From the NCBI RefSeq assembly GCF_000340215.1, contig NW_006921547.1, forward strand, positions 654,140 to 718,139: a stretch of DNA of 64,000 nucleotides, read 5' to 3'. This stretch comes from Pseudocercospora fijiensis CIRAD86 (taxonomy: Eukaryota; Ascomycota; Dothideomycetes; Mycosphaerellales; Mycosphaerellaceae). The notes under the pieces were generated by a model that saw only the letters and a program-made list of their open reading frames with translations, was not told the DNA's origin and made no database searches. Positions 3,901 to 54,979 of this stretch are shown in pieces. Made by a program: the position numbers and the translations under genes. Each line of letters begins with the position of its first letter. The stretch's first letter is position 1.

Positions 3901-4096
3901 TATAAGAAGGGTATATTAGTAGGTAGATAGGGTAGTAGTAAGTACGAGTAGTATTCGATAAGGAGCTAGGAGGAGAGGGAGGAAGGCAGGCAAGTTAGCC
4001 TATTACTAAGCGCCAAGCCCTGCCTAAGGCACTAAGACCCTAGCTTTACTTAGCCTAGTTATATGCCAATTACGTGTAGCCTCTTTAGCCCTAATA
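3901..4096 (-). repeat. Element B 3' LTR
   Basis: 196 bp, matching 10802-10997 over the full length. By eye there are about nine differences between the two LTRs, all transitions, mostly where one copy has CA or TG and the other TA. On the minus strand the LTR begins TATTAG (from TGTTAG) and ends TTATA (from TTACA). Confidence 0.93.
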
Positions 4097-5290
4097 TACG
4101 CTTCCCTTCTAAAGGCCGCGCCCTCGTAGCCTGTCTATATTCTACGACCTCTATTGCCGCTAACTTAGCAAGTCTAATAAGCTACTTAGCCCGCGCTAAA
4201 TTAAACACTTAACTACCTAATTATATAACTACATTAAACCTTACCTCTAATACAATGTCTAACTCTAACTGCGCTATCTCTATATATAATAAACTATAAA
4301 GTAATATGTATCTATAAGAATTAAAGGCCTTCGACTAATTACAATACGAGCGCGTCTTCCCTACTGTAATAGGTAGACGTACGAGGTATTGTAGCACTGC
4401 CTCCGCTCTAAGTAATATCGTATCGAGTTCTTTGCGTCTACTCTTAAAAAACCTAGCAATGTCCGCTTCCGAGGGTTGTCCGCTTCCGAGGGTTTGTTCT
4501 TATTGTTACGAGGGCTATTATTTACTTTTCCGAAAAAACACAGCTCGTCTAGTTTCTATAGGTAAAGGCTATTGTAAGTGCAGTAGTTAAGGTTCGCCTC
4601 GCTTAAAGGGTTAGAAAGATCGAGGAGTAACCTATTATCCGCAAGATCGACCCTAGCTAGCTTAGCTCTATAGTTTTGCCCTTAGTTAGTCTATTAGTCG
4701 CTTAATCTTTTAGGTGGCTTAAAGTTTTAACTTGGCCTTAAAGTTTTAATCAAAGTTTTGATTAAGGTGCGTTAGGCTCGTAGTATAGGTAAGGTTATGT
4801 CTATAGGCGTAGCGATAATAGTAAGTAATGTCGATAATAGCGGCGCTAGTCGTCTTAGCGCTAACTTTACCTTGCTTTCGATTTCCTTCTTCGACTAATA
4901 ATACACTCTGCAATACTGTTACTAATATAGCCGCGCCGGCCGTATCGCCCTTTAGTACGAGCGTAACGCCGTCGTTACTATTATTATTATTAGCACTATT
5001 CGCCTACGCGCGCGCGCGCCTCTATCGACCGCCTAGGCCTTAGGGTCCCGATAGGACGTAGAAACAAGAGGGGCGTTAAGAGGAGGACCTTATAGGGTAC
5101 GCTAGTAAGGAGGTAGATTCTTTAAAAGAGCAGGCGATTAGTTAACAGTTATAGTGCACTCGTTAGTACTCGTTGCGCGTTCGTTATCGTAGTATAGTCT
5201 TGTTGTCCTTCGCTAACAATTGCTTGCCTCTAATTAGTTAGCTTAATAGTACCCCGGGGGTAGTATTGTTCCTAGGCCCTAGTAGTAACA
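4097..5290 (-). other. Element B 3' non-coding region
   Basis: About 1.2 kb between the end of pol and the 3' LTR with no convincing coding sequence on the minus strand. It contains a short tandem duplication of CCGCTTCCGAGGGTT near 4468-4500 (single in the other B copy) and the palindrome at 5244-5268. A short plus-strand open frame at 4828-5043 is hydrophobic and repeat-like and lacks support. Confidence 0.6.
5244..5268. repeat. Palindrome after element B pol
   Basis: An inverted repeat TAATAGTACCCC / GGGGTAGTATT located just past the chromodomain end of pol. It matches 48742-48766 in the other B copy and the palindromes of element E. Its position after the coding region suggests an RNA hairpin or protein-binding site; the role is unknown. 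Confidence 0.75.
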
Positions 5291-8200
5291 TTATAGCCTC
5301 TTAGCCTTCTTCTTGTCCTTTACACTAGTCTAATACTCGTCTAACAACTTAGTTATATCCTTAAAAGAGTCTTTAGCCTCCTACGAGTCCTATTTAAGTA
5401 AATAGCCTTACTATCTTAGAAGGTACTCCTTCTTGCCTTATCTAGTCCGATGCTTTAGTATACGCTCTATAGACTACAGTTCTTTACTATTAGCTAAGAC
5501 TTCTTCTAAGTTAGTAGGTGCTTCATCGCCTTCGCGCTAGTAGTATAGTTTAAGGAGGGATACATAGAAGGTGTTATAGATAGTGTAATAGGGTAGAAGC
5601 TATAACTAGTAGGCCTATGCGGAAGAGCCCTTAACTTCTCGAATACGGAATAGGCTAATATATCTTAGTACGAGCTTAGGCCTTGTTTTGCTATTAGGTA
5701 ATAGGTGTTTGCGGATACGGAGGTTCTTAGTGCTTAGTATAACTATATCGCCTTGTTTAAAGGTTATTAGCGTGTAGTGCCTGTCGTAGTAGGTCTTTTA
5801 GTACTCTTAAGCCTTTGTTAGCTTCTCGGCTATCTTAGCATAGATTTCTCGCATCTTCTAAACCCTCTCGATAGCCGCTAGTATTTCGGGTACTTAACGC
5901 GCTTCCCTTTCCTTACGCTCAGCCTCGAGCGAGGTAAATAGGTCTTGTAGTAAGGCAGCGTTCTAGCCTATTATAGCAAAATAAGGGGAGACCTTAGTAG
6001 ATAAGTAGACACTGTTATTGTATACGAATTTAGCTAGTTATAGGAGGTTGACCTAGTCCTCGGGGTTCTTATTAATGTAACTGCGCAGGTACTACTACAG
6101 GGTAGCATTCTGCCTCTCTGTTTAACCGTTAGTCTATAGATAGAAGGCTGTTAATAGCCGATGCTTTAGTCTTAGCTATAAGCAAATCTCGCTCTAATAG
6201 TAAGATATTAGTATCGATCTACGATCGGATACGATCCCCTTAGGGGTTCCCTAATAGGTACAGAAGATGTTAGTCTATAGCGCCTCTACTATATTAATAG
6301 TAGTCTAATCCTTACGAGTAGGAATGTAGCGAGCACCCTTAGTAAATCGGTCTATAACGACTAATATAGCGTTAAAGACGTCTTTGCTTCCTCTTCGCTT
6401 AGTAGGGGGAAGACCTATAATAAAGTCTATTATAAGCTCTATAAAAGGCTTCTTTAGAATAGGGAGTGAAGACAACTCGCTAAATAGTAAGTGCTTTAGT
6501 GCTTTAACTCGCTAGTATACTATACAGGTCTGTATATACTCCTTTATATACCGCTTACTATTTAGCTAGTAGTATATACGCGATAGTAACTCGTGCGACC
6601 TCTCTATACTATAGTAACTAGCGAGCTCACTATTATAGTGCCTCTTTAAAAGCTCTTGTCTAATCGATTGTTTAGCGGGGACATAGTATCTACCCTTAAA
6701 CTTTAAGTAACCTTTGTCGTCGATCGACTAATTACTCTTACTAGATCGAGTCGTTCGCCTACTTACAAGCCTATTAATACGGTTAACAGCAAAGGCGTCC
6801 CTCTGCTAAGTACGTAATAGCTTATCTATAAACGATTAACTATCCCTATTTGCAAGGTTATTTAATAGCACCCTCGCTATTAAACGAGGTACGTATTATA
6901 TATATCTAATAGCACTAGTAGCCGGAACTACTACAACCTCTTCTGTAGCGCTGTCGCTGTATAGACTATTACTATAGATAGCAATGTCCTTAATCGAGTT
7001 ATTATAGCTCGAGCGATCTACGTCCTTCTTAACGTATACTAGAAGAACGACAACTCCGCTATAGTATTTGTTGCCGCCGCGGGGTCCGGAAGTCCGCTTA
7101 TCCTACGCTTACTTATTAACAATACGGGCTATAGCAATCTTATACTATAGGGTTAGAAACAATGAATTGATATACTAAGTCTCGCTGTCGTAATCAGGTC
7201 GCCTCGATAGGCTATTAGTAGGGTTACTTACGCCTAGCCGATATAATATATTAAAATCAAACCCGGCGAGGTAGACGGCCTATCTAGCCTATCGACCTAT
7301 AACCCTTGTAACCCTAGTAATGCTACGCAGGTTGTTATAGTCTGTATAGACCTAAATTGTATACTAAGTACTATTAAGATAGTAGCGCTAATGCTTAAAG
7401 GCTTCTACGATTACTAAGAGCTCTTACTTATAGGTCTTATATCGACGTTCTATATCGATTATCTTTCGCAAAAAGAAGGCAATCGGGTGCTAGTAATAGT
7501 TATTATCTAATTGCCGTAATATAATAGCCGATATAGCGAACTGTAAAGTGTTAGTCTTAATTCGGATCTGCTTGCTTAGTACGAAATAGTATAACAAGGG
7601 GACATTAGTAAAGCGTTGCTTTAGGCCGTTAAAAGCGGCTTGTGCTCTATTAGTCTATTTAAACTCCCTAGTTAGGTTAGCCTTAGTTTTAGTAAGCTTA
7701 GTTAGGGGCATCACATGCCGTAAATAGCCCTTAATAAAGCGACGATAGAAATTAGCGAAGCCGAGGAACGACTACAGTTCCTTAATTAACGTAGGAATAG
7801 GCCATTTAGTAATAGTTTTAATCCAATTAGGATCAGCCTTAATACCCTTAGTTAATACGAGGAAGCTAAGGAAGGACACCTCCTTAGTAGCAAAGGTGCA
7901 TTTAGAAGGTTTGTAATATAGTCTATAGGCTCGTAGGCGGTCGAGGACCTTACGTACTACGGCCTAGTATTCTACAATATTAGGTAAATGTATATAAACT
8001 AGGATGTTATCTAGGTAAACTATACGGAGATAGTCTAATAGGCCTAAAAGGGCTCGATTGATATAGGACTAGAATGTTATAGGGGCATTAGCTAGGCTAA
8101 ATAGTATAACCAAGTATTCGAAATAGCTATAGCGAGTACGGAAGGCTGTTTTCTATTCGTTACCCTTACGAATGCGGATACGATAGTACGCATCCTTAAT

Positions 8201-9180
8201 GTCTAGTATAGTATAGTAGTAAGCCCTAGAAAGGCGATCGAGGGTCTTATTAATAAGGGGGAGTAGACAGCGGTCTTTAATAGTAATAGCGTTAAGCCTA
8301 CGATAGTCGACATATAGGCGTAGGCTACTATCCTTCTTTAGTACGAACAGGATAGGTGCACTAGTAGGGCTATTACTATACCGAATTCGACTATTAGCTA
8401 GGTTTTCCTCTAGGTACTTACGCAATATAGCAAGCTCTCGCTTACTAAGGTTGTAGAGGGGGCTAAAAGGAACCTCCTTGCCCTCTATAATATCAATCTT
8501 ATAATCCGTCTCCTTAAATATAGGCAATGTCGATGCTAGGTAGTGTTTAAACACATTAATATAGGTCTCTCGGATAGGCTCTAGTATGCGAGCAAGCTAA
8601 TTAGGATTATTAGGGGGCACAGGTTCATCGTTATTACTACCGAGTAGGTCGGCAGTCGGATTAGCTAAGGCAGGTATTAGGTTGCTAATAAATAGGACCC
8701 TAATATCGTTAGGGCACTCGCTAACATTAATGTATTTAATGTCCTTTTTCCTAGCGATTCTAAATCGCTACTTCTAGAGGCCTAGGTCTATAGCTATAGC
8801 GTAGTACTTAAGAACAGGGTTACTAATAACAATATCGGATAGGAGGCTGTCTATGTCTACTGCGTAGGCAGTAAAATCTAGCAGGCGCTTATTCCCGAGG
8901 TCGTCCTTTAGAGCTATAGGAATATAGTAGGCCCTATAGGTTAAGTGCCGAGCGTTATTAAACTAAGCAAGGGTTGGCAGGTTAGTTTTCGGCAGTTGTC
9001 GAAGGTCTAATTGCTTAGCTAGGCGATAGCTAATAAGGGCACTAACTAAATTTCCTAGATCTAGTATAACCTTAGTTTAATAGGTAGTGCCCTTCGTGTC
9101 CTGTATAAGGTGGGAGCGTGTTATAGCTAGTACAATGTCGATAGTCTTACGCCGCACGAGGCTAACAGTTAGTGCGGCGC
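5290..9180 (-). pseudogene. Element B pol polyprotein (decayed)
   Basis: On the minus strand the order is protease region (about 8600-9160), RT (about 7650-8560), RNase H (about 7140-7640), integrase (about 5870-6780) and a C-terminal chromodomain (about 5300-5470). The longest open piece, 8153-8554, reads as the RT N-terminal half (EVPFSPLYNLSKRELAILRK, then APILFVLKKDSSLRL and VDYRRLNAITIKD). The active-site motif near 8015 reads Y-L-D-N instead of Y-L-D-D, a change expected from TG to TA. The chromodomain shows the family form I-L-x-H-R-T-R-x-G-K-x-E-Y-L with Trp replaced by a stop. The enzyme set would copy and integrate the element, the chromodomain targeting marked chromatin. Confidence 0.85.
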
Positions 9181-10600
9181 TTACTCTTTTTTCGAAGGTT
9201 GGCCTGTAGGGGTGGCGTTAGCCGCTAAGAGGTACTTTCGGTATTTGGCGGAAGCACGATCAATTCGGGCCTAGTCCTTAGGTTTGTCGCATTAGCCTAG
9301 TAGATAGCTAGTGCTGTTACAATTAAAGCACTTTAATCCGGTTAGTAGACTACCGTAGCTATTGTTATTGTTAGTAGAGCGGTTAGTATTATAGGGATAC
9401 GAGCCCCTTCTGCGGCCCCTATCGCGGCCTCCTCTATGTAGCCGCCGGCTACGGCCTCTTCTACGGTTATTGTTACTGTTCCTACTATTAGCATTGTTGT
9501 CCTAGTAGGAACCTTAGTTTCCTCCGCGGCTACGGTTGCTACGGTTAGTACTAGCTAGTCGGATCCTCGATTCTGGTCGTTATTAGAGCTAAACAGCCCG
9601 TTCGGCTGTTTCTGCTTCGACTATAAATTAAATGCGTATTAGATTGGCTTGTTCGAATACACGGCGACGGTCTAATTCGAGGATAAGTTCCTATCTAAGC
9701 TTAGGGCGTATTTCCGAGATCTATATAGAATTAGTCTTAGGCGGAAGGTCGTCTTTAAGGGTTTTCAAATAGGCTTTAAATAAGCGAGCCGATTGATTAG
9801 TCTTCTATTTAGCTCGAAGATACAGGTCCTAAGCATGTTGTTGCCTTAGTATAGGGTTTCTAAGGGTGTCTAGTATAATAGTTTTGTAGGTTTGCTACTA
9901 GATAGCAGTCTAGTTATTAAGGGAGTCGAAATGGTTATCCTATATACGCTTTAGGTCGCTATTAATGTACTATATAGCGTGTACGACTAAGGAATAGTCG
10001 TCTAGTAGCGCTCTTAGTGCGTTACGCTACTTAAGTTCACAGTTACGAATATAGTCGTTATACTGCTTCCGACTAGAGCTATTAAATATAGTATAGTCCT
10101 TAAGTTTAGCATCCTTCTTTTAGGTAGTAAAGAAGGTCCTACTATTAGCTTAGCAGTAGTTGTTAGAGATTCCTAGAGGCGGCGAATCTCGAGAAGATTA
10201 TCCTTTAGCTATTGTTCTTAACGTAAGGTAGTAAGCCTATTTTAGGTAGCTTCTTAAAGTCTCGCTACTAGTTAGGGACTAAAGGCTAGCTAGCTATATC
10301 GACGGTTAACAATATTGTTAAGAATGTCGTCGACAGGCAATTCTAGGTCGTTACCTAGAATTGTAGGTTCTTCTTTAGTAGGTCCTATAGTAGGCTCTTC
10401 GGTAGGAGGCACTTTAGTAGGTGCTTTAGTAGGCACTTTAGTAGTAGGCACTGTGCTACTAGCGTTGTTATTGCTAGCGCTACTAGCGGTAGCACGGTTG
10501 TTGTTGCTTCGTAATAAGCCGGCTATTATAATAGGGGGTGACACTAATAATGTATTATTAGCCCCTAAGATACGGATGTAGCGGAATTAGTAGATATTAG
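9181..10600 (-). pseudogene. Element B gag (decayed)
   Basis: Nucleocapsid/capsid gene upstream of pol. A CCHC knuckle is readable at 9289-9330: C-F-N-C-N-S-T-S-Y-L-L-G-stop-C, with the His read as Tyr. An open stretch at 10290-10544 is the N-terminal part, rich in Asn and Ser and with repeated Pro-Thr-Lys-Val/Ala units. The other B copy (43570-43750) lacks most of these Pro-Thr units, so they appear to be a local expansion. gag and pol seem to share one long frame region; whether a frameshift separated them cannot be told. Confidence 0.75.
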
Positions 10601-10801
10601 TCTAGTACGATTGACTTAGTATAATAGGCCGTATAGAAGGCCTTACTTAATAATTGGTACGGTTGTTTCGATAGAATAGTACGTATAGGTCCCGTTCTTC
10701 GGGCGTAATATAGTTAAATCGATAGTTTTCGTAGCTATACCGCTAAAAGCTTGAAATAAGGACTATCTAGCTGCTGCCCTTAAAGGGTAGATCGAATACT
10801 A

Positions 10802-10997
10802 TATAAGAAGGGTATATTAGTAGGTAGATAGGGTAGTAGTAGGTACGAGTAGTATTCGATAAGGAGCTAGGAGGAGAGGGAGGAAGGTAGGCAAGTTAGC
10901 CTATTGCTAAGCGCTAAGCCCTGCCTAAGGCACTAAGACCCTAGCTTTACTTAGCCTAGTTATATACTAATCACGTATAGCCTCTTTAGCCCTAACA
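10802..10997 (-). repeat. Element B 5' LTR
   Basis: 196-bp LTR identical in extent to 3901-4096. On the minus strand it precedes gag. It retains CA at the end that reads TA in the other LTR. The right target-site copy CTTCG follows at 10998-11002. Confidence 0.93.
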
Positions 10998-25539: not shown

Positions 25540-26760
25540 CTCGCGCTCTAATTAGTTAGTTCGTTTTTAGGTAGATCGGAGGTAGCATTTACCTCCGGCG
25601 ACGATATATACGGTAGTATTATTACTAATACTTATATACTAGGTAGTTGTTATATTATTATACTCGCTATCGCCTCGAGTATCCTCCTTCTTAGTATAGA
25701 ATCTAGAAACTTGCCTAAGTATATAGTTCGGCGTACTTCTAGATATAACCTATTTAAGCTATACTAATTTCTAGACCCTTAGTCGTTCGGTTTGCAAACT
25801 ATATAACGTATATAGTTAAGTTCTTTACCGGTACCCCTCCGGTTTAGTTCCGGTTTAGTTTTTTACCCCGCTACTCTAAGCTAGTTTCCGAGAAAGTCTA
25901 ACTAAACTACGACGATATACGACGATATAAGACGATATACGACGCCCTCGGATCGGGTCTAGGGGCCCTATGTTATATACGCTATACGATTATATCTATA
26001 TTCCGGGCTCTTTAGACGTATTTTAGGTTAGGTTTTTATCCGTAGCCGGTACGTAGCCGGCAAAATAGTCCGTATACCCGTTCCTTAGTAAACTAAACTA
26101 AACTAAACTAGAATTTCGGCTAAGCAAACTAAACCTAACTAACCCGAACTACTACGGGGTCTACTAATTTCTAGCGTAGATTGTCGGTCTTATAACCGCG
26201 CCCTAGAGTTTCCTAAATCCCGTTATAAGGTAGTAAGAATATCCTCGTAGGTCCTATAGCTAGTATTGCTAATATAACTAGTTAAAACAATCCGGTTGCC
26301 CTTCTAGTTAGCGATAGTTCCCTCCTAGGAGCTATTATCGTAGTTACGCTAGACGCCTCGGACTATACGAGACTATAGTTAACCTAGACTAATTAGTATA
26401 TTTAGGTTAGCGGCAATCTTTAAGGTAAAGGCAAAGCATATACCTAAGGCATCTACTATAATATTATAGTAGGTATCTACTAGTATAACCTCCCTATTTA
26501 CTCCCTATATACTAAGGGAGACGTCTCTATTTATTAGTAGCTTAAGCTATTTAGCTTAAAGCTTACTTATAATAAGTAACTCCGAACTATTATTAAGTAT
26601 TGCTACCTTCTTCTAACTATAGCTCTTATTAGTAACCTTAATATAGATAGCGGGAACTACGGCAAAGGAACGGGTAACTACTAAAAGGTCTATATTATTA
26701 GGGATAGAGTATAGTTCCTTAGGTTAAGGAGGTACTACTCGACTAATTTATTAGCTAGTA
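25540..26760 (-). pseudogene. Element E protease region, split by a hAT element
   Basis: In two pieces, 25540-25771 and 26172-26760. The upstream piece reads on the minus strand as an aspartyl-protease-like domain: KVAILNNSSELLIISKL near 26590 (an active form would have Asp-Ser/Asp-Gly where Asn-Asn-Ser is read), LINRDVSLSI and VILVDTYYNIIVDALGI. This is the usual C-terminal domain of gag-type ORFs in fungal gypsy elements. Several stops interrupt it. Confidence 0.7.
25772..26163. mobile_element. Short non-autonomous hAT element (copy 1)
   Basis: 392 bp with terminal inverted repeats TAGACCC...GGGGTCTA and a perfect 8-bp target duplication CTAATTTC at 25764-25771 and 26164-26171, the hAT hallmark. 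Inside the ends are runs of AAACTAAACT-like sequence and a pair of TAGCCGG motifs near 26043-26063. It shares its ends with the large hAT element starting at 33572 and with the copy at 54432-54979. It has no coding capacity and presumably moved with the transposase of an autonomous relative. Confidence 0.92.
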
Positions 26761-33571: not shown

Positions 33572-33700
33572 TAGACCCCGTAGTAGTTCGGGTTGGTTTA
33601 GTTTGGTTTACTAAGCCGAAGATCTAGTTTAGTTTAGGTTAGTTTACTAAGCAACTATAGGAGTATATAGTTCAAACTATACAATTTATCGGTTTCTAAG
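33572..33700. repeat. Left terminal inverted repeat of the large hAT
   Basis: Begins TAGACCCCGTAGTAGTTCGG and continues with repeats of GGTTTAGTTT. The first 15 or so bases are the inverse of 50077-50094. The GTTTAGTTT-rich subterminal stretch is shared with both short hAT copies. Confidence 0.85.
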
Positions 33701-34788: not shown

Positions 34789-34889
34789 TTAAATATAGAC
34801 ATTGTAGCCTTTTAGAATCTAATTAAGTGCTTTCAAATCCTTATCTATAATCGTAATACGCTTCGCGTAGATAGCTATAAGGTTAACCG

Positions 34890-34937
34890 CTAAAATAGTA
34901 TTAGTATAGTTCGAAAAGAGGTAGAAGAGAAATATAC
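34890..34937 (-). other. Predicted intron 2 of the H3-like gene
   Basis: 48 bp, minus strand: GTATAT donor, TACTAAT branch site, TTTTAG acceptor. Its removal restores the conserved H3 segment E-x-x-N-L-x-A-I-H-A-K-R. It has no TAGCCGG motif. Confidence 0.88.
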
Positions 34938-35120
34938 ATTCGAAGATACGAACTAGGTAGGCTTCTATAGCCTCTTAAAGGGCGTCTAGCGCGGAGGCTT
35001 AGAAGCGAAGGTCTAGTATATAATACTAGGCAATTTCGCGAATAAGACGTCGGAAAGGAGCTTTACGAAGTAGGAGATTAGAACCCTTCTAATACTTCCG
35101 AATCTTACGGAGGGCTATAG

Positions 35121-35199
35121 CTAAAGAAGGATTAGTAAAAAGATAGTAAGAATGCCGGCTACGCTACCGGCTACGCTGCCGGCTACAAATAGGACTTAC
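35121..35199 (-). other. Predicted intron 1 of the H3-like gene, with TAGCCGG repeats
   Basis: 79 bp, minus strand: GTAAGT donor, TTACTAATC branch site, CTTTAG acceptor. It contains three TAGCCGG copies 12 bp apart. Removal restores G-T-I-A-L-R at the start of the histone fold. Confidence 0.88.
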
Positions 35200-35440
35200 T
35201 TCCTAGGCGCTATCGACGCTTCGTACGATTATTACTACTAGTAGTAGAAGCGCTAGTCGTCGTCTTACGTAGAGCCTTACTCGCGACGCCCTTTCTAGTA
35301 CTAGAGCTAGCGGTAGTAGTAGCAGCCTTCTTACGTTAATAGACTATACTCGTTCTACTATTTCCGGTCTTATTACGACCCGTAGAAGTAGTAGGTCTCT
35401 TCTTACGAGGCGTCGTAACTTAGTTAAGTAGACTCGGTAT

Positions 35441-35967: not shown

Positions 35968-36682
35968 TTAACTCCGCCCTATCTTAGAGGCTAAGGTACC
36001 GAGCGGAAACCCTATAGCTTATATTTACTTAGTTGTCGCGGAGCGCTTATAGGTAAGGTATTAGGAAAGAGTATAAAAGGTACGAGAAGACTATCCTAGA
36101 ATATAGGTCGTAAGTAAATAAGAGTAGTACGCCTAGTTATTTATATAGTACGTTACTCTATACGACTAAGAGCCTATATTATCTCGTACTTCGCTTATAA
36201 GACCTCGACTCTACTAATATACTATTAAGCTCCTCCTCGGTCGCTATCTCTATTCTTCTTTAAGTTGCCGGACTTAGTACGTATTTGTCGCTATATAATA
36301 GCGCTACGTATTATAGAGAATTAACTCCGCCGTATCTCGAAGGCTAAGGTACCGAGCGGAAATCCTATAGCTTATATTTACTCGGTTATCGCGGAGCGAT
36401 TATAGGTAAGGTATTAGAAAAGAGTATAAAAAGTACGAGAAGAGTATCCTAGGATATAGGTCGTAAGTAAATAAGAGTAGTACGCCTAGTTATTTATATA
36501 GTACGTTACTCTGAATAACTAGGAGCCTATATTATCTCGTACTTCGCTTATAAGACCTCGACTCTACTAGTATACTATCGATCTCTACCTCGGTCGCTAA
36601 TACGCTATCTTAATTCTTCTTCGAGTTGCCGCACTTAGTACGTATCTATCGCTATATAATAGCGCTACGTATTATAGAGAAT
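35968..36682 (-). repeat. About 355-bp tandem duplication in the hAT
   Basis: Two adjacent copies (35968-36321 and 36322-36682) share long identical stretches, for example the run beginning GGCTAAGGTACCGAGCGGAA and the run ending GCGCTACGTATTATAGAGAA. On the minus strand both copies read as a similar peptide (TYQVRQLEEE-like, then SRVEVLQAKYEIIQA, stops taken as Gln), but in different frames as they stand, because of small indels. Confidence 0.88.
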
Positions 36683-37020: not shown

Positions 37021-37960
37021 ACGAAAATAGGCCTCCTCCTAGGTTAATCTACCGACTAAATACAATTTCTAACTAATCCGCTATAAACCGACGCCGAATT
37101 TTAGCTAGAAGCTATATATCTTTATTTTAAAGAGTAACCCGCTTCGTATAGATAGTAAGGAGGTTTAAAAGCTTAAGCTTAGTTACGAGAAAAACCTCTA
37201 TAGCTTCCTAAAGAGTACTAATCGCCTTAGCCGTAAATCGTATACTAGACCGAAAATCTAATATAATTTCTCGGACGAGTCGCTAGAAGGGAGTCCTAAG
37301 GATTAAAAGCTCGGTCCCTCTTTTATTTTAGAAAAGCCGGATCTAGCGAAGGGTAATAGTACCTAGTTTAAAGCGCCGCTTCTTTATCGTCGAGTCCTAC
37401 CTTATTCCCTTTTTTTAATAGAAAGATAACTTTTCTTTGCGATAGCCTTCGTCCGCCTACTTTTCTTAGCCTTCTCTTATCTACTTAAAGCCTTCTTGTT
37501 TTTCGGTACTATTTTCCGGGGAACCCTCTTCCTTCGTATATACTATAGAGAGTCTTACTCTTCCGATATCTCGTTCTCGTTACGGTCTCCCTATACTTAG
37601 CTTGCTTTACCCTTGCCCTTTAGGCTCTAAAGATATTCCTCTACGTATTTAGGCGACGAAGGTATATCGGTAGGACCTAGAAAATTAATAAGCCTATAAT
37701 CGTAAAGAGATATTTATACTTCTTACCTTCTAGAATCTAGAATAAATAGTCTTCTATTAAACCGCCTTAGTAGGTTATCGTTAGATTCGTATAAAGAATA
37801 GTAGCTTAAGGAAGGGGAGGTAGCCGGCTTAGGAAGGCCCGAAGAGCCGAATCCTTAAGGTATATTTGTCTTTAAGAATATAGGGAAAGGGAAGAAGGAG
37901 AGGAAGAGCGAATAGAGAATTAGAAATAGTCCGTAAGTAAGCGGGGTAGGTTGCTATAGT
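37021..37960 (-). pseudogene. Second histone H3-fold gene of the hAT (decayed)
   Basis: The fold at 37085-37378 reads RFKLGTITLR-Q-IRLF-Q-NKR, TELLILRTPF-Q-RLVREI, LDFRSSIRFTAKAISTL-Q-EA, EVFLVTKLKLLNLLTIYTKR and VTL-Q-NKDI-Q-LLAKIRRR, where Q marks a stop; these match H3 from GTVALREIRRYQ to KDIQLARRIR. Four of the stops fall exactly on H3 Gln residues. Unlike the other H3 gene, this fold is not interrupted by an intron. It is preceded by a long Lys-rich region (about 37380-37600, e.g. KEKLSFY and STIKKRR) and an uncertain N-terminus near 37900. The sequence differs clearly from the first H3 gene, so the pair is not a recent duplication. Confidence 0.88.
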
Positions 37961-38031: not shown

Positions 38032-39379
38032 TTACCTTCTACGTAAACGCTTCGTTTCCTTAAAGCTACTCTAAGCCTATATATATTTCCGCTTCTCGAC
38101 CTAGTATCGCCTTCTACCTCCGCCCTCCTCCTCTTCGTTATCGCGAATTAGGGTTTAGCTTAGACTAAATTTCGTATTCTCTTCGCGCTCCTAGGTTTCT
38201 TCGATCTTAAGGGTTTCTAATTCCTCGATTTACTCCTTTAGTATAATCTTTAGTATCCTACCTTAGCGACTCTAGTAGAGGAGATAGTATCGGAATACTA
38301 TAATAGATTCGAAGGTAGTAGGCGAGTATATTCGATTAAAGCGGCCTTAGTAACGAGCGATACTAAAAGACCTCTTATAGCCTATACCTACGCTCGGTAT
38401 AGCGAGGACGTCCCGAGCGACTAACGCTATCGTTAGAAACTTAGGCTCTAACCGCTACTATATAGCGAGAATATCGTCTCCGAATTCGTCTAGAAGACCG
38501 GTAAGATCTAGAGATTATTAGCCCTCTTTCTGAGCCTACGGGTTTATACTTACTTGCGCGCCGATAGAAATTAAACTCTTCTTTATTTACTTTAGTAGTT
38601 GCTTCCTCTCCTGCCTCTACTTTCTACCTACGAAATAGGTATAATATCGGAGCCTTCTAAACCTTCTTTTTCTTTATAGGAGCTATATTTAGACTAGTTT
38701 CTTTCCGAGGCTCGTAGAATATCTTTTCTAGAATAGTCTAGTAATACTTAGGCTATTCCTCGTCCTCTTTCTATTCCGGCTTCTACTAGTATATATCCTT
38801 TTCTACCGGGTTAAGCAAGTACGTAACGCTATAGATATCCCCGAACGACTAAAAGATAGTACTATAATATTTATATAACTTAGTATAGGAGGTATCTATA
38901 GCTTTCGTTATAGCTACTTTCTAGGGAACGCTCTTCTTAGCTAGCTTAGCTACGGTTTCGTCGAGCTCGTTAAAGAGCTAGTTATAGTATATAAAGATAA
39001 GGTAGATCGTCGGTCCTCGGGTTCTTTTAATCGTAGTAGTAATCTCCGCGTAATACTTACTAATATTAACGAGATACTCTACTTAGCGCTATTCGGCGGC
39101 GGTAAGCCCGAGCTACTTAATATCCTCGGAACTCTAATAGATCTCGAGAGCGGTATATAAAGTATATCCCCTCGTAACTATATAGAATATCGAGTCGAAC
39201 CGGGTTTTAACGTCTTAGGTAAAACGGAGTAGGCGCTAAGGAGGCCGCTCTTACTATCGCTTATTCTATACGATATTCTAGGTATCGGTTTTAGGGCGCT
39301 CGATTAGGTTCTTTTAAATAGCCTCGAATCGGTTATATTTCTATAAGCTCGAGTTTGTATATATTACTGGACGACGAAG

Positions 39380-39448: not shown

Positions 39449-40403
39449 CTTATATAATATAAGAGCGAGGCTCTCTACCTTATCCCGTCTTATTACTATA
39501 ACGAGTTTCTCGACTTTCGACTTTGCTTTATCCTTAGCTAGGATCTTCTATTAGTCGTCGTTTAATAGTATAATTTTAAGCGTCTTAAAGAGGGCTCGGA
39601 TCGCGATTTAAACTCTATAAGCGAGGTAGGGAAACTTCTATAGGGATATAACTAGCAACGACGTCGGCTCCGATTTGATAGGGCTAGGGCTATTACTAGG
39701 CTCCTCTTTATCGTTATTATCGTACGTATTATCGTACGTATCCGGAATCGTAGCGAGCTTAATATTCGGAAGATTAAGCTAGATTATAGACCTTATAATC
39801 TCCTCTACGTACTCGACCCTATTAATACGATTAGTAATTTTAAAGATATATACGAGTGAATTGTATATATAACGCCTTATATAATATTCGATTATTACTA
39901 GCGTTATCCGTAGTAATCGAGATTAGTTTCGTTATTACGCTAACCCTATCTATTACCGTATAGATAAGCTTCGCTATATCCTTACTAGTATAGGAACCTA
40001 GAATTTTAGGGAATCCGATTATAAGTTCCTAGAGTTTCTAATCCGAATTAATAAAGTGTGGTATAATCGAGAGGAAGGAGGCTCTTATAGTCCGGCTTAA
40101 CTAGCTATCGATAGTAATAGCTACTCGGCGAGTATTACGGAGGATCTCCCGAATATCGTCTAACGTAGCCTCTTTATTCTTTTCGAATATAATACGCTAG
40201 ATTATCGCGCCGAGAAATAGGGGAGGGTAGTTTATAAGATATAGGTATATCTTCTATATAGACTCCCTTTCGTAGAAGTCTTCTAGAAGACCGTTTATAG
40301 CTAGTATTTCGTTTACTAGTTGCTTAAAGTCTTTAAAGGAGAAATCGGTAGCCTTTAATCCTAGAGCTTCCTTAAGCGTAGCCTATAATAATTAGCTAGA
40401 TCT

Positions 40404-42700: not shown

Positions 42701-43116
42701 CTTACTATTATAAGGAAGGGGGGCGGGGGCGTAGCGTATAGTAGTTGTTATAGGTCTAGGTATAAAGGAAGAAGTTAAAAAGTATAAGAATATCGCGAAG
42801 CCCTAATTATTACCGCCTACGTAACGTTATATAGGTAAGCTTTCGCAACTATAGTAACTACGCCCTAGTAATAGCAACTACGCCCTAGTAATAGTAACTA
42901 CGCCCTAATAATAGCAATAGAGCGTAGTAAATATAACCTAGTTACTATTATAGCTAGTAATCGTAGCTAGTAGTCGAATAAGAGTATCCTTATAGTAAAA
43001 CTAATATAGTCTCTAGTTTAAACTAGGAATCGATATATTTTAAAAAAACCAAACCGGAACTAGGGAGCTAGTTCGCTACTAAGAAACTAAACTATATACG
43101 TTTAGTAGTTCGTAAA
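42701..43116 (-). other. Right subterminal region of the large hAT
   Basis: Non-coding. It has about three copies of a 20-bp unit (ATAGTAACTACGCCCTAGTA) at 42850-42920, then sequence closely matching 54760-54960 in the short hAT copy 2, ending where B is inserted. Confidence 0.75.
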
Positions 43117-43305
43117 TGTTAGAGGCTATACGTAATTGGTATATAACTAGCTCGAGTAAAGCTAGGGTTATAATGCCTTAGGTAGGGCTTAGCGCTTAGC
43201 GTTAGGCTAACTAGCCTACCTTCCTCCCTTTCCTCTTAGATCTCTATCGAATACTATACTAACATACTACTACCCTATCTACCTACTAATATAACCCCTA
43301 TTATA
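43117..43305 (+). repeat. Element B second copy, 5' LTR
   Basis: 189 bp, begins TGTTAGAGGCTATACG and ends CCTATTATA. It matches 49881-50069 and the reverse complement of the LTRs of the first copy. Confidence 0.93.
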
Positions 43306-44860
43306 TAGTATTCGATCTATCCTTTAAGGGTAGTAGCTAGATAGTCTATATTTCAAGCTTTTAGTAGTATAGCTACGAAAACTATCGATTTAACTATATT
43401 ACGCCCGAAGAACGGGACCTATACGTACTATTCTACTAAAACAACCGTACTAATTATCAAGTAGGGCCTTCTATACGGCCTATTATACTAAGTTAATCGT
43501 ACTAGGCCGATACCTACTAATTCCGCTATATCCGTACTATAAAGGGCTATAATATATTATTAGTACTACCCCTTATTATAATAGCCGGCTTATTACGAAA
43601 CAATAACAATAACAACCGCGGCGCCGCTAGTAGCGTTAGTAATAATAACACTAGTAGTATAGAGCCTATTAATAAAGAGCCTATAGTTCTAGGTAATAAT
43701 CTAGAATTTCCTACTAACGACATTCTCGATAATATTATTAACCGTTAATATAGCTAACTAGCCTTTAGCCCCTAGCTAATAGCGAGGCTTTAGGAAGCTA
43801 CTTAGAACAGGCTTACTACCTTACGTTAAGAATAATAGCTAAAGGATAACCTCCTCGAGATTCGCCGCCTATAGGAGTCCCTAATAACTAATACTAAACA
43901 AGTAGTAGGGCCTTCCTTACTACCCGTTTAAAAGAAGAATGCTAAGCTTAAGGACTATACTGTATTCGACGGCTCTAGTCGCAAGCAGTATAATAATTAT
44001 ATACGTAATTATAAATTAAACTAGCGAAATATACTAGGGGCCCTTCTAGATAACTACTTATTAGTCGTCTACGCTATATAATACATTAATAGCGACCTAA
44101 AACGCACCTAGGATAACTATTTTAACTCCCTTAATAATTAGACCGCTATTTAGTAGCAAACCTATAAAACTGTTATACTAGATACCCTTAGAAACCCTAT
44201 ACTAAGGCAATAACACGCTTAGGACTAGTACCTTCGAGCTAAACAAAAGACTAATTAATCGGCTCGCTCGTTTAAGGCCTATTCGAAGACCCTCGAAGAC
44301 GACCTTCCGGCTAAGACTAATTCTATATAGATCTCGGAAATACGCCTAAAACTTAGGTAGGAGCTTATCCTCGAATTAGACCGTCGTCGTATATTTAAAC
44401 AAGCTAACCTAATACGTATTTAATTTAGAGTCGAAGTAGAAACAGCTAAACGAGCTGTTTAGCTTTAATAACGACTAGAATTAAGGATCCGGCTAGCTAG
44501 TACTAACCGTAGCAACCGTAGCCGCGGAGGAAACTAAGGTTCCTACTAAAGCAACAATACTAATAATAGAAATAGTAATAACGACCGTAGAAGAGGCCGT
44601 AGCCGGCGGCTATATAGAGGAGGCTATAATAGGGGCCGTAGAAGGGGCTCGTATCCCTATAGTACTAACCGCTCTACTAATAGCAACAATAGCTATAGCA
44701 ATCTCCTAACCGGATTGAAATGCTTTAACTATAATAGTACTAGCGATCTACTAGGCTAATACGACAAACCTAGGGATTAGGCCCGAATCGACCGTACTAC
44801 TACTAAGTACGGAAAGCACCTCTTAGTAGCTAACGCTACCCCTATAGGCTAACCTTCGAA
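43306..44860 (+). pseudogene. Element B second copy, gag (decayed)
   Basis: The leader begins TAGTATTCGATCT; the capsid region is readable from about 43570 (IIIAGLLRNNNNNN, then GNNLEFPTNDILDNIINR). The zinc knuckle at 44721-44762 reads C-F-N-Y-N-S-T-S-D-L-L-G-stop-Y: C-x2-C-x4-H-x4-C spacing with two Cys turned to Tyr. The Arg/Gly-rich stretch before it (44560-44690) is typical of nucleocapsid regions. It lacks the Pro-Thr expansion of the other copy. Confidence 0.78.
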
Positions 44861-47800
44861 AAAAGAATAAGCGCCGCACTAACTATTAGCCTCGTACAGC
44901 GTAAAACTATCGATATTATACTAGCTATTATACGTACCTATCTTATATAGGATACCTAGGGCACTAACTATAAAAGTAATATTATACTAGACCTAGGCAA
45001 TTTGGTTAGCGCCCTTATTAGCTATTGCCTAGCTAAGCAATTAGACCTTCGATAATTAAATAAGGCTAACCTACTAACCCTTGCTTAGTTTAATAACGCT
45101 CGGCACTTAACCTATAGGGCCTACTATATTCCTATAGTCCTAAGAGACGACCTCGGCAATAAGCGCTTATTAGATTTTACCGCCTACGTAGTAGATACAG
45201 ACAACCTTCTATCCGATATTGTTATTAGCAACCCTATTCTTAAGCACTACGCTATAACTATAGACTTAGGCCTCTAATAGTAGCGATTTAGAATCGCTAG
45301 AAAGGAGGATATTAAGCATATCGACGTTAGCGAGTGCCCTAACGATATTAGGGTCCTTTTTATTAGCAACCTAATACTAGCCTCCGCCTTAGCTAACCCG
45401 ACTATTAATCTTCTCGGTAGAGATAATAATAAACCTATACCCCCCGATAGTATAGACCCTAACTAGCTCGCTCGTATACTATAGCCTATTCGCGAAACCT
45501 ATATTAATATATTTAAATACTACCTAGTATCGACATTGCCTATATTTAAAGAGACGGACTATAAGATCGATATTATATAGGGTAAGGAAGTTCCTTTTAG
45601 ACCGCTCTATAAGCTTAGTAAACGCGAGCTTGCTATACTACGTAAATATCTAGATAAGAACCTAGCTAATAGTCGAATTTAGTATAGTAATAGCCCTACT
45701 AGTATACTAATCCTATTTGTTCTAAAGAAGGATAGTAGCCTACGCCTATGCGTTAATTACCGTAGACTTAATACTATTACTATTAAAGACTATTGCCTAC
45801 TTCCGCTTATTAACGAGACCCTCGATCGCCTTTCTAGCGCTTATTTCTATACTATATTAGACATTAGCGATACGTACTGTCGTATCTGTATTCGTAAGGG
45901 CGACGAATAGAAAACAGCCTTCCGTACTCGCTATAGCTATTTCGAGTATTTAGTTATACTATTTAGCCTAGCTAATGCCCCTATAACATTCTAGTCCTAT
46001 ATTAATCGGGCCTTATTAGGCCTACTAGACTACCTCTATATAGTTTACCTAGATAATATCCTAGTTTATACCTATTTACCTAATATTATAGAGCACTAGG
46101 CTATAGTACGTAAGGTACTCAACCGCCTACGGGCCTATAGACTATATTACAAGCCTTCTAAATGTACCTTTACTACTAAGGAGGTAGCCTTCCTTAGCTT
46201 CCTCGTATTAACTAATAGTATAAAGGCTAGCCCTAATCGGATTAAAACTATTACTAAATAGCTAATACCTACTAGCATTAAGGAGCTTTAGTTATTCCTC
46301 GGCTTCGCTATCTTCTACCGTCGGTTTATTAAGAGCTATTCGAGAGAATTCAAATAGACTAATAAGGCATAAGCCGCTTTTAACGGTTTAAAGCAACGCT
46401 TTACTAAAGTCCCCTTATTACGCTATTTCGTACTAAGTAGGCAGATCCGTATTAAGACTAACGCTTTACAGTTCGCTATATGAGCTATTATATTATAGCA
46501 GGCTAATAACAATTACTAGTACCCGATTACCTTCTTTTTACAGAAGATAATCGATATAGAGCGCCGATACGAGACCTACGAGTAGGAGCTCTTAGCAATC
46601 GTAGAAGCCTTTAAGTATTAGCGCTACTATCTCGATAGTGCTTAGTATACCGTCTAGGTCTATACGGACTATAACAACCTACGTAGTATTACTAAGGTTA
46701 CTAGGGTTATAGGTCGATAGGCTAGATAGGCCGTCTACCTCGCCGGGTTCGATTTTAATATACTATATCGGCTAGGCGTAAGTAACCCTACTAATAGCCC
46801 GTCGAGGCGACCTAATTACGATAGCGAGACCTAATATATTAATTCTTTGTTTCTACCCCTATAGTATAAGATTACTATAGACCTTGCCGTAAAGCAAGCG
46901 TAGGATAAGCGGCTTACCGGACTCCGCGACGGCTAGAAGTATATTAATGCTCTTACTATATTAATAGTACGTATTAAGGCAAGGGCTAATAATACTAATA
47001 GGAAGAGTTATAATAACTCCCTAGTCGATATCGCTATATATAGTAATAGCGATAGCACTACTATAGTTAATCCGGCTACTAGTACTACTAGATATATATA
47101 GTATATACTACGTAAGATAGCGAGGGTACTATTAAGCGAACTTGCGGACGGAGATAGCTAAGCCTTTATAAACGAGCTGTTACGCGCTTAGCAAAGGGAC
47201 GCTTTTGCTATAGCCTATATAGATTAGCTTGCTAATAGTCGCAAAACTAGATCTAGTAAGAATTAGTCGGTTAATACCGATAGCTATTTGCGCTATAAGG
47301 GCAAATTGTATGTCCCTACCGAGTATTCGATCCGATAAGAGCTTCTTAAGCGACACTATAATAGTAAGCTTGCCGGTTACTATAGTATAGAAAGGTCGTA
47401 CGAGCTACTATCGCGTATATACTACTAGCTATATAGTAAGCGGGACAAAAAGGACTACGTAAATACGTATGCCGTATATTAACGAGTAAAAGCACTAAAG
47501 CACTTGCTATTCGGCGAGTTGTCTTTACTTCCTATTCTAAAGAAGCTATTTATAGAGCTAATAATAGGCTTTATTATAAGCCTTCCGCCTACTAAGCGTA
47601 GGGGTAGCAAGGATATCTTCGATACTATCCTTATTATAGTAGATCGATTTACTAAGGGGGCTCGCTATATTCCTACTCGGAAGGATTAGACGGCTATTAA
47701 CCGAGCTAAATCACTATAGAATAACATCTTCTATAGCTATTAAGGAACCCCTAAGGGGATAGTCTCCGACCGGGGCTCGATATTTATATCTTATTATTAG

Positions 47801-48720
47801 AGTAAGATATGCCTATAGCTAAGACTTAAGTATCGCCTATCTATAGCGTTTTATCTATAGATAGATAGTTAGACCGAGAGGCAAAATGCTACCTTATAGC
47901 AATACTTACGAAGCTATTATAACGAGGACCCTAATAGATAGGTTAACCTCCTATAACTAGCCGAATTCGTATATAACAATAGTATATATTTACTAACTAA
48001 GGTCTTACTATATATAGCAATAATAGGCTAGGACGCTGCTTTGCCGTAATAACTATTTACCTCGCTCGAGGCCGAGCGTAAGGAAAGGGAAGCGCGTTAA
48101 GTACTAACGCCTAAAACACTAGCGGCTATCGAGAGGGTTTAAAAGATACGGGAAATCTACGCTAAGATAGCTAAGAAGCTAACAAAGGCTTAAGAATACT
48201 AAAAACCCTACTACGACAAGCACTATACGCTAATAACCTTTAAGTAAGGCGATATAGTTATACTAAGCACTAAGAACCTCCGTATCCGTAAACACCCGTC
48301 GCCTAATAGTAAAACACGCCCTAAACTAGCACTACGGTTTATTCGCCTATCCTGTATCCGAGAACCGAAGGGCAATAGCCAGGCCTACTAGTTATAGCTC
48401 CTACTATACTACACGATCTATAATACCTTCTATATGTCCCTCCTTAAACTATACTACTACCGTAAAGGCCCTAAAGAAGCCCCTACTAAATATAAAGAGA
48501 TACTAGCTAACGGCGAGGAACTGTAGTCTATAGAACGTATCCTAAAGCACCGAACTAGACAAGGCAAGAAGGAATACCTATTAAGATAGCAAGGCTATTT
48601 ACCTAAATAGGACTCGTAGGAAGCTAAAGCCGCTTTTAAGGATATAGCCGAGTTGCTAGATAAATATTAGACTAGTATAAAGAACAAAAAGAAGGCTAAG
48701 GGCCTATAATGTCGCTAGAA
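44861..48720 (+). pseudogene. Element B second copy, pol (decayed)
   Basis: Protease region 44880-45300, RT 45500-46270, RNase H 46300-46860, integrase 47280-48100, chromodomain about 48520-48640. RT reads LPIFKETDYKIDII near 45535, ILFVLKKDSSLRLCVNYRR near 45710-45765 and active site YLDNILVY near 46045 (Asp to Asn, the same change as in copy 1). The integrase start is an open stretch at 47504-47689 with SLPPTKRRGSKDIFDTILII and VDRFTKGARYIPT. The chromodomain reads IERILKHRTRQGKKEYLLR-stop-QGY. Confidence 0.86.
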
Positions 48721-49880
48721 GTCGCTAGAGAGACCTAGGATTAATGCTACCCCTAGGGTACTATTAGCTAACTAATTAGAGGCGAGTAATTGTTAGTAAA
48801 GGTAAGGCTATACTACTATAGTAAACGCGTACCGAGTGTTAACAAGCGTACTATAATACATTATCTAACCGCTACTCTTTTAAGGATTCTACCTCTTTAC
48901 TAACGCAATAAGGCCCTTCTCTTAGTATTTAGGTCCCCCCCCTATTTCTTTATTCTATCGAAGCCTCGAGGCCTAGGCGATCGGCGAGGATAGCGCGCGC
49001 GTAGATACTAATAATAATAATAATAATAGCGTCGCGCTACGAGCTAGCGATAGTTAGAGGACGGTACGGCTATATTAGTAACGGTGTTATAGAGTATATC
49101 GCTAGCTAAAGAAGGAAATTAGGAGTAAGGTAAAGTTAGCGCTAAGACGGCTAGCGCCGCTATTATTAATATTACTTGCTATTATTACTACGCCTATAGA
49201 TATAACCTTACCTATACTACGAGCCTAAAGTACTATACTAACTAAGCTAAAAAGGATTAATCTATTCGGAGGGCTCGAAGCTTAAAAGATTAAGCGGCTA
49301 AACTCCTCGATCTTTCCGACCCTTTAAGCGAGGCGAACCTTAACTACTATACTTATAATAGCCTTTACCTATAGAAACTAGACGAACTGTGTTTTTAAAA
49401 AGATAAGATTAATTAACAATTAAAGGCTACTAAACCTTACTAATTAGGGCTAGCGAAACTACGAACAATAATAGCTCTTATAATAATAAGAACAATCCCT
49501 CGGAAGCGGACATTTCTAGGTCTTTTAGAGTAGACGTAAAGAACTCGGATAATATTACTTAGAACGGAGGCAGTGCTATAATACCTCGTACGCCTACCTA
49601 TTATAGTAGGGAAGGCGCGCTCGTATTATAATTAGTCGATAGTCCTTAATTCTTATAGATATATATTACTTTACTTTATTGTATATAAGGATAGTATAGT
49701 TAGAGTTAAGCATTATAGTGCTTAAGGAAGGTAAGGTTTAGTATAGTTATATAATTAGGTAGTTAAGCGTTTAATTTAACGCGGCTAATAGCTTAGTTAA
49801 TCTGCTAAGTTAGCGGTAGTAGAGGTTAAGATTAGAATATAGACAGGCTACGAGGGCGCGGCCTTTAAAAGGGAAGCGTA
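48721..49880 (+). other. Element B second copy, 3' non-coding region
   Basis: No protein recognised. Contains the palindrome TAATGCTACCCCTAGGG and complement at 48742-48766, an AATAAT run near 49010, and a single CCCTCGGAAGCGGAC unit that is doubled in the other copy. Confidence 0.65.
48742..48766. repeat. Palindrome after pol, element B second copy
   Basis: Inverted repeat equivalent to 5244-5268 in the other B copy and related to the palindromes of element E. Confidence 0.8.
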
Positions 49881-50069
49881 TATTAGAGGCTATACGTAAT
49901 TAGTATATAACTAGCTCGAGTAAAGCTAGGGTTATAATGCCTTAGGTAGGGCTTAGCGCTTAGCGTTAGGCTAACTAGCCTACCTTCCTCCCTTACCTCT
50001 TAGATCTCTATCGAATACTATACAAACCTACTACTACCCTATCTACCTACTAATATAACCCCTATTATA
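49881..50069 (+). repeat. Element B second copy, 3' LTR
   Basis: 189 bp, begins TATTAGAGGC (TG turned to TA) and ends CCTATTATA. Confidence 0.93.
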
Positions 50070-50094
50070 GTATATCGAACTACTACGGGGTCTA
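50070..50094 (-). repeat. Right end of the large hAT element
   Basis: The last bases of the hAT after the B insertion, ending CGAACTACTACGGGGTCTA, the inverse of the left end at 33572. Confidence 0.85.
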
Positions 50095-54431: not shown

Positions 54432-54979
54432 TAGATCCTATACTAGTCTAGTCTTATTAGGTTTAATTTACTAAGTCGGAATTCTAGTTTAGTTTAGTTT
54501 AGTTTACTAAGAAACTAGTATACGGACCTAGTTTACCGGCTACGGATAAAACCCCGACCTAAAATACGTATAAATAGCCTAAAATATAGATATAATTATA
54601 TAGTATATATAGTATAAGGCCCCTATAGTATTCTAGAGTCGACTCGGAGTCGTCGTATATCGTTATATATCGTTATAGTATAGTCGGACTTTCTCGTATT
54701 TGCTTAGAAACTAGTTTTAAACTAGCGGGATAGTAAACTAAACTACTCTAGAATCTAACCGCAAGCGGCGTTAATATAATCTAGTTACTATAATAGCCGG
54801 TAATAGTAGCTAGTAGTCTAATAAGAGTATACTTATAATAAGACTATTATAGTCTCTAGTTCGAACTAGGGATCTATATAGTTTAGAGAAGCTAAACTAG
54901 AACTAGGAAACTAGTTTACTACTAAGAAACTAAACTATATACGTTTTATAGTTCGTAAACTAAACTACTACGTAGTCTA
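54432..54979. mobile_element. Short non-autonomous hAT element (copy 2)
   Basis: 548 bp with eroded ends (TAGATCCTA left, ACGTAGTCTA right) that align to TAGACCCCG...CGGGGTCTA. The left half matches the reverse complement of copy 1, including a TACCGGCTACGG motif at 54538. The right half matches the right end of the large hAT (42900-43116). The flanking 8 bases do not match. Confidence 0.78.

What the first reader, a model, noticed from the sequence alone, without database searches (positions are those of the whole stretch)
34789..35440. A transposon-borne, intron-containing histone H3-like gene
Seen: on the minus strand, removing two introns with good fungal splice signals gives a 174-codon frame with a basic tail and a histone H3 fold. 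The first junction restores GTIALRKIRKY-Q and the second restores N-L-I-A-I-H-A-K-R. Stops fall on Gln positions of H3. Known: H3 is a host chromatin protein, and hAT elements normally encode only a transposase. Inference: the element captured or evolved an H3 variant that could mark its own chromatin, affect where it inserts, or counter silencing.
Basis: partly seen in the sequence, partly recalled or inferred. Interest (0 to 1): 0.96.

Follow-up and report, generated by a model that had tools for sequence, protein, structure and literature searches.

The report
Known histone-carrying fungal transposon, mutated
The sequence is a dead copy of an already published fungal jumping gene that carries histone H3-like genes; re-reading it suggests that this histone gene still has introns, which argues against the published idea that it was picked up as a processed transcript.

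Summary
In detail: window 34789-35440(-) is an intron-bearing histone H3-like frame, inactivated by C-to-T changes, inside a hAT element. It is not new. Dhillon et al. 2019 (PMC6710886) describe this 9.5-9.9 kb hAT element, with 8-bp target duplications and one or two H3-like copies, in Pseudocercospora fijiensis, which fits the genome held here. Manning et al. 2013 (PMC3538342) describe another hAT carrying an H3-like gene in Pyrenophora tritici-repentis.

My calls add these points. (1) The element carries two different H3-like genes: H3-A (the finding) and H3-B (37094-37441, no intron at the H3-A sites). (2) H3-A has two intron-like gaps in 21 of 21 copies compared. The 48-nt second one equals the "16 AA insertion" of the 2019 paper, so H3-A is unlikely to be a simple retrocopy. 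(3) In copy L014 the H3-A tail keeps lysines in register with H3 K9, K14, K18, K23 and K27. (4) Neither gene groups with CENP-A. (5) hAT catalytic and weak dimerisation-region similarity lie upstream on the same strand.

A chromatin function is untested. My selection test could not show that the gene was maintained, and the 21 copies compared all carry stops.

The parts
33572..33592 (+). Terminal inverted repeat at the end of the element downstream of the histone genes
   Evidence: Exact 21-base match; the same end is seen in all 20 copies printed of 21 (L016 was not printed)
35200..35440 (-). H3-A exon 1 (basic tail)
   Evidence: the tail aligns to the host H3 tail
35121..35199 (-). H3-A intron 1, 79 nt, GTAAGT...TAG
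   Evidence: GTAAGT in 20 of 21 copies, TAG in 21 of 21
34938..35120 (-). H3-A exon 2 (most of the histone fold)
   Evidence: PF00125
34890..34937 (-). H3-A intron 2, 48 nt, a multiple of three
   Evidence: 48 nt and TAG in 21 of 21 copies, donor GT in 2 and AT in 19; genome-wide donor motif with GT 101, with AT 226, control 0
34789..34889 (-). H3-A exon 3 (end of the fold and short C-terminal extension)
37094..37441 (-). H3-B, second H3-like gene (fold region), no intron at either H3-A site, several stops
   Evidence: PF00125 3.9e-21; H3 chains in the PDB 1e-25; 150 PF00125 places scored genome-wide of 772 candidates
35968..36682 (.). Tandem pair of about 360-bp repeats between H3-B and H3-A
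   Evidence: cross-matches to other copies
39897..40154 (-). hAT transposase catalytic-region similarity, with stops
   Evidence: tblastn with an intact 805-aa hAT transposase ORF of the same genome (L039): 7 of 7 copies, E 3e-6 to 2e-4
38356..38475 (-). Probable hAT C-terminal dimerisation region (weak)
   Evidence: PF05699 E 0.011-0.018, below cut-off, in 3 of 3 copies scanned; motif in 7 of 7 copies
43116..50082 (.). LTR-type element inserted near the other end of this copy; about 204-bp repeats at 43116-43319 and 49880-50082
50074..50094 (-). Presumed other terminal repeat of this copy, cut by the LTR insertion
   Evidence: Two mismatches to the repeat; the 8-bp flanks of this copy do not match

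Best explanation
This is a RIP-killed copy of the published H3-carrying hAT transposon of Pseudocercospora fijiensis. The element is about 9.5-9.8 kb. On one strand it carries a transposase, an H3-like gene without introns at the tested sites (H3-B) and, last, an intron-bearing H3-like gene (H3-A, the finding). Its transposase multiplied it by cut-and-paste with 8-bp target duplications (ends and duplications are shown; transposition itself is inferred). The histone genes travelled as passengers, and repeat-induced point mutation later destroyed the copies examined. H3-A derives from a canonical H3. Because it keeps introns, one within one codon of a host H3 intron, it was probably captured as genomic DNA rather than as a transcript (inferred). 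Whether the histone ever served the element is unknown; I take passive carriage of genes that were open before RIP as most likely.
For: Ends and 8-bp duplications: TATTTAGC on both sides of L014 (9783 bp) and CTAAATAC on both sides of L013 (9479 bp). Published: 9.5-9.9 kb full-length set, 8-bp TSD, one or two H3-like copies per element. The genome has 73.9 Mb, and its intact H3 lies on contig 6 as on scaffold 6 in the paper. Histone matches. Transposase: (7 of 7 copies). Introns: (21 of 21 copies). The host H3 has a phase-1 intron just before GTVALRE (read by eye from L035); H3-A intron 1 is phase 1 one codon later. Stops at host Gln positions: 97 of 101 cells in 21 H3-A copies and 83 of 116 in 18 H3-B copies. 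Tail register: where 0 of 2000 shuffles reached the score in 9 of 21 copies (worst copy 79 of 2000).
Against: In this window copy the 8-bp flanks do not match and the far end is split by an LTR element. Of six copies with upstream sequence fetched, three showed only the 3' end and one (L026) neither end at up to 3 substitutions. No splicing was observed, since no RNA data are held; intron 2 has AT instead of GT in 19 of 21 copies and in 226 of 327 genome-wide motif matches. Pfam alone found no transposase in six frames of this copy or in the upstream part of L013. The species name rests on agreement with the paper, not on a label; the paper counts 56 scaffolds, 30 contigs are held here.
Confidence: 0.88

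Rival explanations
1. The published account in full: a processed H3 transcript was captured, and the second copy differs by a 16-residue insertion that arose by mutation; there are no introns.
For: H3-B has no intron at either site. The 48-nt stretch of H3-A is in frame and free of stops in 19 of 19 sequences printed (L014, L015 and L022 were not caught by that search), so it could be translated. The authors found exon-exon junctions in their ten best copies.
Against: Removing 48 nt restores the exact H3 register, and the stretch has a donor (GT or, where TG became TA, AT), a CTAAT site in 19 of 21 copies and TAG in 21 of 21. A separate upstream gap with GTAAGT in 20 of 21 copies sits within one codon of a host H3 intron. 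The residues read from the 48 nt have no counterpart in H3.
Confidence: 0.12
2. The element kept its histones because they worked: H3-A and H3-B are transposon-borne H3 variants that altered chromatin at the element or its targets.
For: Two H3 genes in one element, and another H3-carrying hAT in a second fungus with mostly intact copies and ESTs (PMC3538342, section part read). Frames were open before RIP by the stop pattern. The L014 tail keeps five lysine positions. Against the host gene, 14 of 19 H3-A and 1 of 3 H3-B comparisons show fewer changes at constrained than at four-fold sites at p<0.05.
Against: Between element copies the same test shows nothing: 0 of 20 comparisons at p<0.05, with poor power. 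The host comparison (0.12-0.19 against 0.20-0.40) can be explained without selection, because four-fold changes accumulate on both branches. H3-B shows no significant H3 tail similarity in the five copies scored.
Confidence: 0.2
3. H3-A and H3-B were captured separately, one as genomic DNA and one as a transcript.
For: They differ in introns and share 28 of 51 compared positions (L013 against L026).
Against: They fall on the same side of a branch against six cellular H3/CENP-A sequences, but support drops from 89/90 to 76/85 once RIP-ambiguous codons are masked: not resolved.
Confidence: 0.35

Closest known systems
H3-carrying hAT element of Pseudocercospora fijiensis (Dhillon et al. 2019, PMC6710886; abstract, Background, Results and part of the Discussion read)
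   Same: Length, 8-bp duplication, inverted ends, one or two H3-like copies, RIP damage, host H3 on scaffold 6, hundreds of copies, the extra copy differing by 16 codons
   Different: The paper reads the captured H3 as an intron-less transcript or retrocopy and could not identify the dimerisation domain; here H3-A has two introns and a weak dimerisation region is visible. The paper identified DUF659; Pfam's DUF659 model reached only E 0.12 in this copy
H3L-carrying hAT of Pyrenophora tritici-repentis (Manning et al. 2013, PMC3538342; passages, and part 1 of 2 of the transduplication section, read)
   Same: A hAT with an extra H3-like gene whose protein matches neither H3 nor CenH3 completely
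   Different: 5.6 kb, mostly intact copies with ESTs; the 2019 paper reports no similarity between the hAT element sequences; I had no sequence of it
Canonical fungal histone H3 (host gene, L035)
   Same: H3-A (copy L026) has 52 of 75 compared fold positions identical, the same loop length, and lysine register in the L014 tail
   Different: About 40-residue N-terminal extension, Gly at the S10 position in L014 (Ser in L027 and L028), different C-terminus
CENP-A (host gene, L036; S. pombe cnp1 chain from the PDB)
   Same: Histone fold
   Different: H3-A lacks the longer loop 1, and both element genes fall outside the CENP-A pair

Membership tests
hAT transposon | Terminal inverted repeats with 8-bp target site duplication | tested here: met
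   L014 and L013, 2 of 6 copies with both sides in hand; not met in the window copy itself
hAT transposon | hAT transposase catalytic region | tested here: met
   7 of 7 copies, E 3e-6 to 2e-4 against an intact hAT ORF of the genome; Pfam alone missed it
hAT transposon | C-terminal dimerisation region (PF05699) | tested here: inconclusive
   E 0.011-0.018, below cut-off, 3 of 3 copies; unrelated families scored as well or better in the same call; motif and order fit in 7 of 7
Published H3-hAT family of P. fijiensis | 9.5-9.9 kb, one or two H3-like copies, RIP-damaged, in a genome whose host H3 is on scaffold 6 | tested here: met
   no direct alignment to the published consensus, whose file I did not open; L013 measures 9479 bp
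Histone H3 | H3 histone fold | tested here: met
   H3-A (L014) 1.7e-36 and H3-B 1e-25 against PDB H3 chains
Histone H3 | Conserved N-terminal tail | tested here: inconclusive
   H3-A partly kept: shuffles as high 0 of 2000 in 9 of 21 copies, 79 of 2000 in the worst; H3-B not recognisable: 71 to 1051 of 2000 in the five copies scored
CENP-A | Longer loop 1 and grouping with known CENP-A | tested here: not met
   Loop length in H3-A and tree of both genes; the 60 best PDB hits shown for H3-A are H3
Functional histone gene | Open frame, expression, chromatin incorporation | tested here: not met
   Every one of 21 H3-A copies has stops; expression and incorporation are not testable here

The most novel reading that the evidence does not exclude
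hAT elements of Dothideomycete fungi have repeatedly recruited histone H3 as a working accessory gene. This lineage had a pair of its own H3 variants, one intron-bearing with an H3-type modifiable tail and one with an unrelated basic tail, which acted on chromatin before RIP silenced it.
Probability: 0.18. Interest if true: 0.75.

Novelty: already known. Interest (0 to 1): 0.3.

Why it matters
The carriage of H3 by this element is published, so the finding itself is ordinary. The re-reading matters in a smaller way. Introns in H3-A contradict the stated transcript or retrocopy origin for that copy, and two distinct H3 genes in one element, with a further case in another hAT, make it testable whether H3 capture is chance or favoured.

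Tried and rejected
Rejected: CENP-A identity of H3-A or H3-B. Rejected as evidence: transversion periodicity along the element (no window passed my threshold, one reached the weaker mark) and transversion rates between copies (too few changes). Led nowhere: protein search for H3-B (none of 22 candidates) and H3-A (1 protein, P0001, of 65 candidates; an H3-like protein without a name); Pfam on six frames for a transposase. Genome searches for DUF659 and the hAT dimer domain list 21 and 47 places, none in this window; I compared only some of the other places with the capped H3 lists, by eye, and saw none inside an H3 element. Paper searches listed no third report of an H3-carrying hAT by title or abstract start; the other papers listed were not opened. 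Copies whose 5' end was not found (4 of 6) were not pursued.

Failed and redone: one search stopped with an error and had the first donor site off by one base; one search is the corrected run. Corrected: the host CENP-A query and the CENP-A row held eight residues at two splice junctions that I had filled in from expectation; one search repeats the trees with X there. With the flawed row the A+B support was 85/90 unmasked and 65/57 masked; the corrected values are 89/90 and 76/85.

Full report
The finding is real. In the window, minus strand, the frame 35440-34789 splits into three exons with introns of 79 and 48 nt. Unspliced and read through its stops, it already matches the Pfam core-histone model at 7.8e-15. 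Its spliced relative in copy L014, with X at stops, matches PDB histone H3 chains at 1.7e-36. The surrounding 64 kb are depleted of CA (0.04-0.34 of expectation) and TG (0.06-0.41), which is the mark of RIP. Over 21 copies, 97 of 101 stops in the fold fall where the host H3 has Gln.

The gene is repeated. Of 436 first-look candidates in the genome 40 were scored; these 40, the window's own included, span nearly the whole query at 86-100% identity. A 19-base motif around the second donor site occurs 327 times exactly (101 with GT, 226 with AT), with none in the reversed control. Copies with a further change in the motif are not counted there.

The element is of hAT type. The end downstream of H3 is sharp at TAGACCC/GGGTCTA in all 20 copies printed of 21 (L016 was left out because its alignment stopped earlier). 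For six copies I held sequence on both sides. Two of them, L014 and L013, have both ends and perfect 8-bp duplications, with lengths of 9783 and 9479 bp. Of the other four, three showed only the 3' end and L026 neither, at up to 3 substitutions. The window copy is damaged: an LTR-type element at 43116-50082 lies against the far end, and its two 8-bp flanks differ. Upstream of the histones, on the same strand, lies a stretch similar to the catalytic region of an intact 805-aa hAT transposase ORF of the same genome (7 of 7 copies, E 3e-6 to 2e-4). Some 1.5 kb further on lies a hAT-like dimerisation motif (7 of 7 copies by pattern; Pfam E 0.011-0.018 in 3 of 3 copies, below cut-off). Unrelated families scored as well or better, so the dimerisation region is probable, not shown.

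There is a second histone gene, H3-B, at 37094-37441, with Pfam E 3.9e-21 and PDB H3 at 1e-25. Genome-wide, 150 of 772 candidate histone places were scored. Two of the 150 have no stop in the match: the host H3 (C6, L035) and the host CENP-A exon (C5, L036). The rest are listed with stops. H3-B runs without interruption through both H3-A intron sites.

All this is published in outline. Dhillon et al. 2019 (PMC6710886; I read the abstract, Background, Results and part of the Discussion, and passages) report in Pseudocercospora fijiensis 784 H3-like copies in 471 elements of one hAT family. The full-length set is 9.5-9.9 kb, with 20-bp ends and 8-bp duplications; elements carry one or two H3-like copies; all copies but the original are RIP-damaged; the host H3 lies on scaffold 6. 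The genome held here has 73.9 Mb and its intact H3 on contig 6. Manning et al. 2013 (PMC3538342; passages and part 1 of 2 of one section) report an H3-like gene in a hAT of Pyrenophora tritici-repentis, mostly intact and with ESTs. Hence the novelty grade.

Where my reading departs from the 2019 paper is the introns. The paper infers capture of a transcript or retrocopy, and reports that the second H3-like copy of an element carries a 16-residue insertion. In all 21 copies that I compared, H3-A has exactly 48 extra nucleotides at one point. They begin with GT (2 of 21) or AT (19 of 21), the latter in a TG-to-TA context, and end with TAG (21 of 21), with CTAAT in 19 of 21. Removing them restores the H3 register. 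A second gap of 66-79 nt, with GTAAGT in 20 of 21 and TAG in 21 of 21, sits one codon away from, and in the same phase as, a host H3 intron (host intron read by eye). Two spliceosomal introns are the simplest reading, so H3-A is unlikely to be a simple retrocopy. H3-B may be one. Against this: the 48 nt are in frame and stop-free in 19 of 19 sequences printed, and no RNA evidence is held, so splicing is inferred.

The tail of H3-A is H3-derived. In L014 the alignment keeps lysines at the positions of K9, K14, K18, K23 and K27, with Gly at position 10. Shuffled tails reached the score in 0 of 2000 trials for 9 of 21 copies and in 79 of 2000 for the worst. The window copy and four others lack 27 nt here. 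The H3-B tail showed no such similarity: 71 to 1051 of 2000 shuffles were as high in the five copies scored (a sixth, L011, was tried and not caught by the script).

Trees of the fold (20 rows: 7 H3-A, 7 H3-B, 6 cellular) show H3-A and H3-B each as one group, and neither joins CENP-A. The two lie together against the cellular sequences with support 89/90, falling to 76/85 when codons that RIP could have altered are masked (85/90 and 65/57 with a flawed CENP-A row). One capture followed by duplication is favoured but not shown. Rows were chosen by me from 21 H3-A and 18 H3-B copies.

Function. A transversion-only test, which RIP cannot disturb, gave no difference between amino-acid-changing and four-fold sites among element copies (0 of 20 comparisons at p<0.05; four-fold counts are 0 or 1 in 18 of the 20, so power is poor). 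Against the host gene, H3-A has 0.12-0.16 changed at constrained sites and 0.20-0.36 at four-fold sites (14 of 19 comparisons at p<0.05), and the three H3-B copies tested have 0.17-0.19 and 0.38-0.40 (1 of 3 at p<0.05). Since four-fold changes arise on both branches and protein changes nearly all on the element's, this does not demonstrate selection. I therefore prefer passive carriage and keep the functional reading as a minority hypothesis.

Noticed in passing
window 43116-50082 and 3901-10985: Two related copies of an LTR-type element, one inserted against the end of the hAT copy (79-86% alike, opposite strands).
   Followed up: partly
window 35968-36682: A tandem pair of about 360-bp repeats (about 90% alike) between the two histone genes, with cross-matches in other copies; [quoted passage not shown]
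   Followed up: partly
window 26080-26163 and 54461-54517: Further stretches related to the terminal region of this element, suggesting other members of the family in the window.
   Followed up: no
L037, L038: An H3-B subfamily (351-bp matches) slightly closer to host H3 than the window's H3-B (47 of 88 against 43 of 86 positions); whether its elements also carry H3-A was not checked.
   Followed up: partly
L011: This locus holds two H3-A copies beside one H3-B, apparently two element remnants side by side.
   Followed up: no
L035, L036: Intact host H3 (three exons) and an intact exon of the host CENP-A; the first splice junction of CENP-A could not be settled by eye.
   Followed up: partly
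P0001: A 163-aa H3-like protein with an unusual N-terminus from an unnamed source, 55% identical to H3-A over 55% of the query.
   Followed up: no
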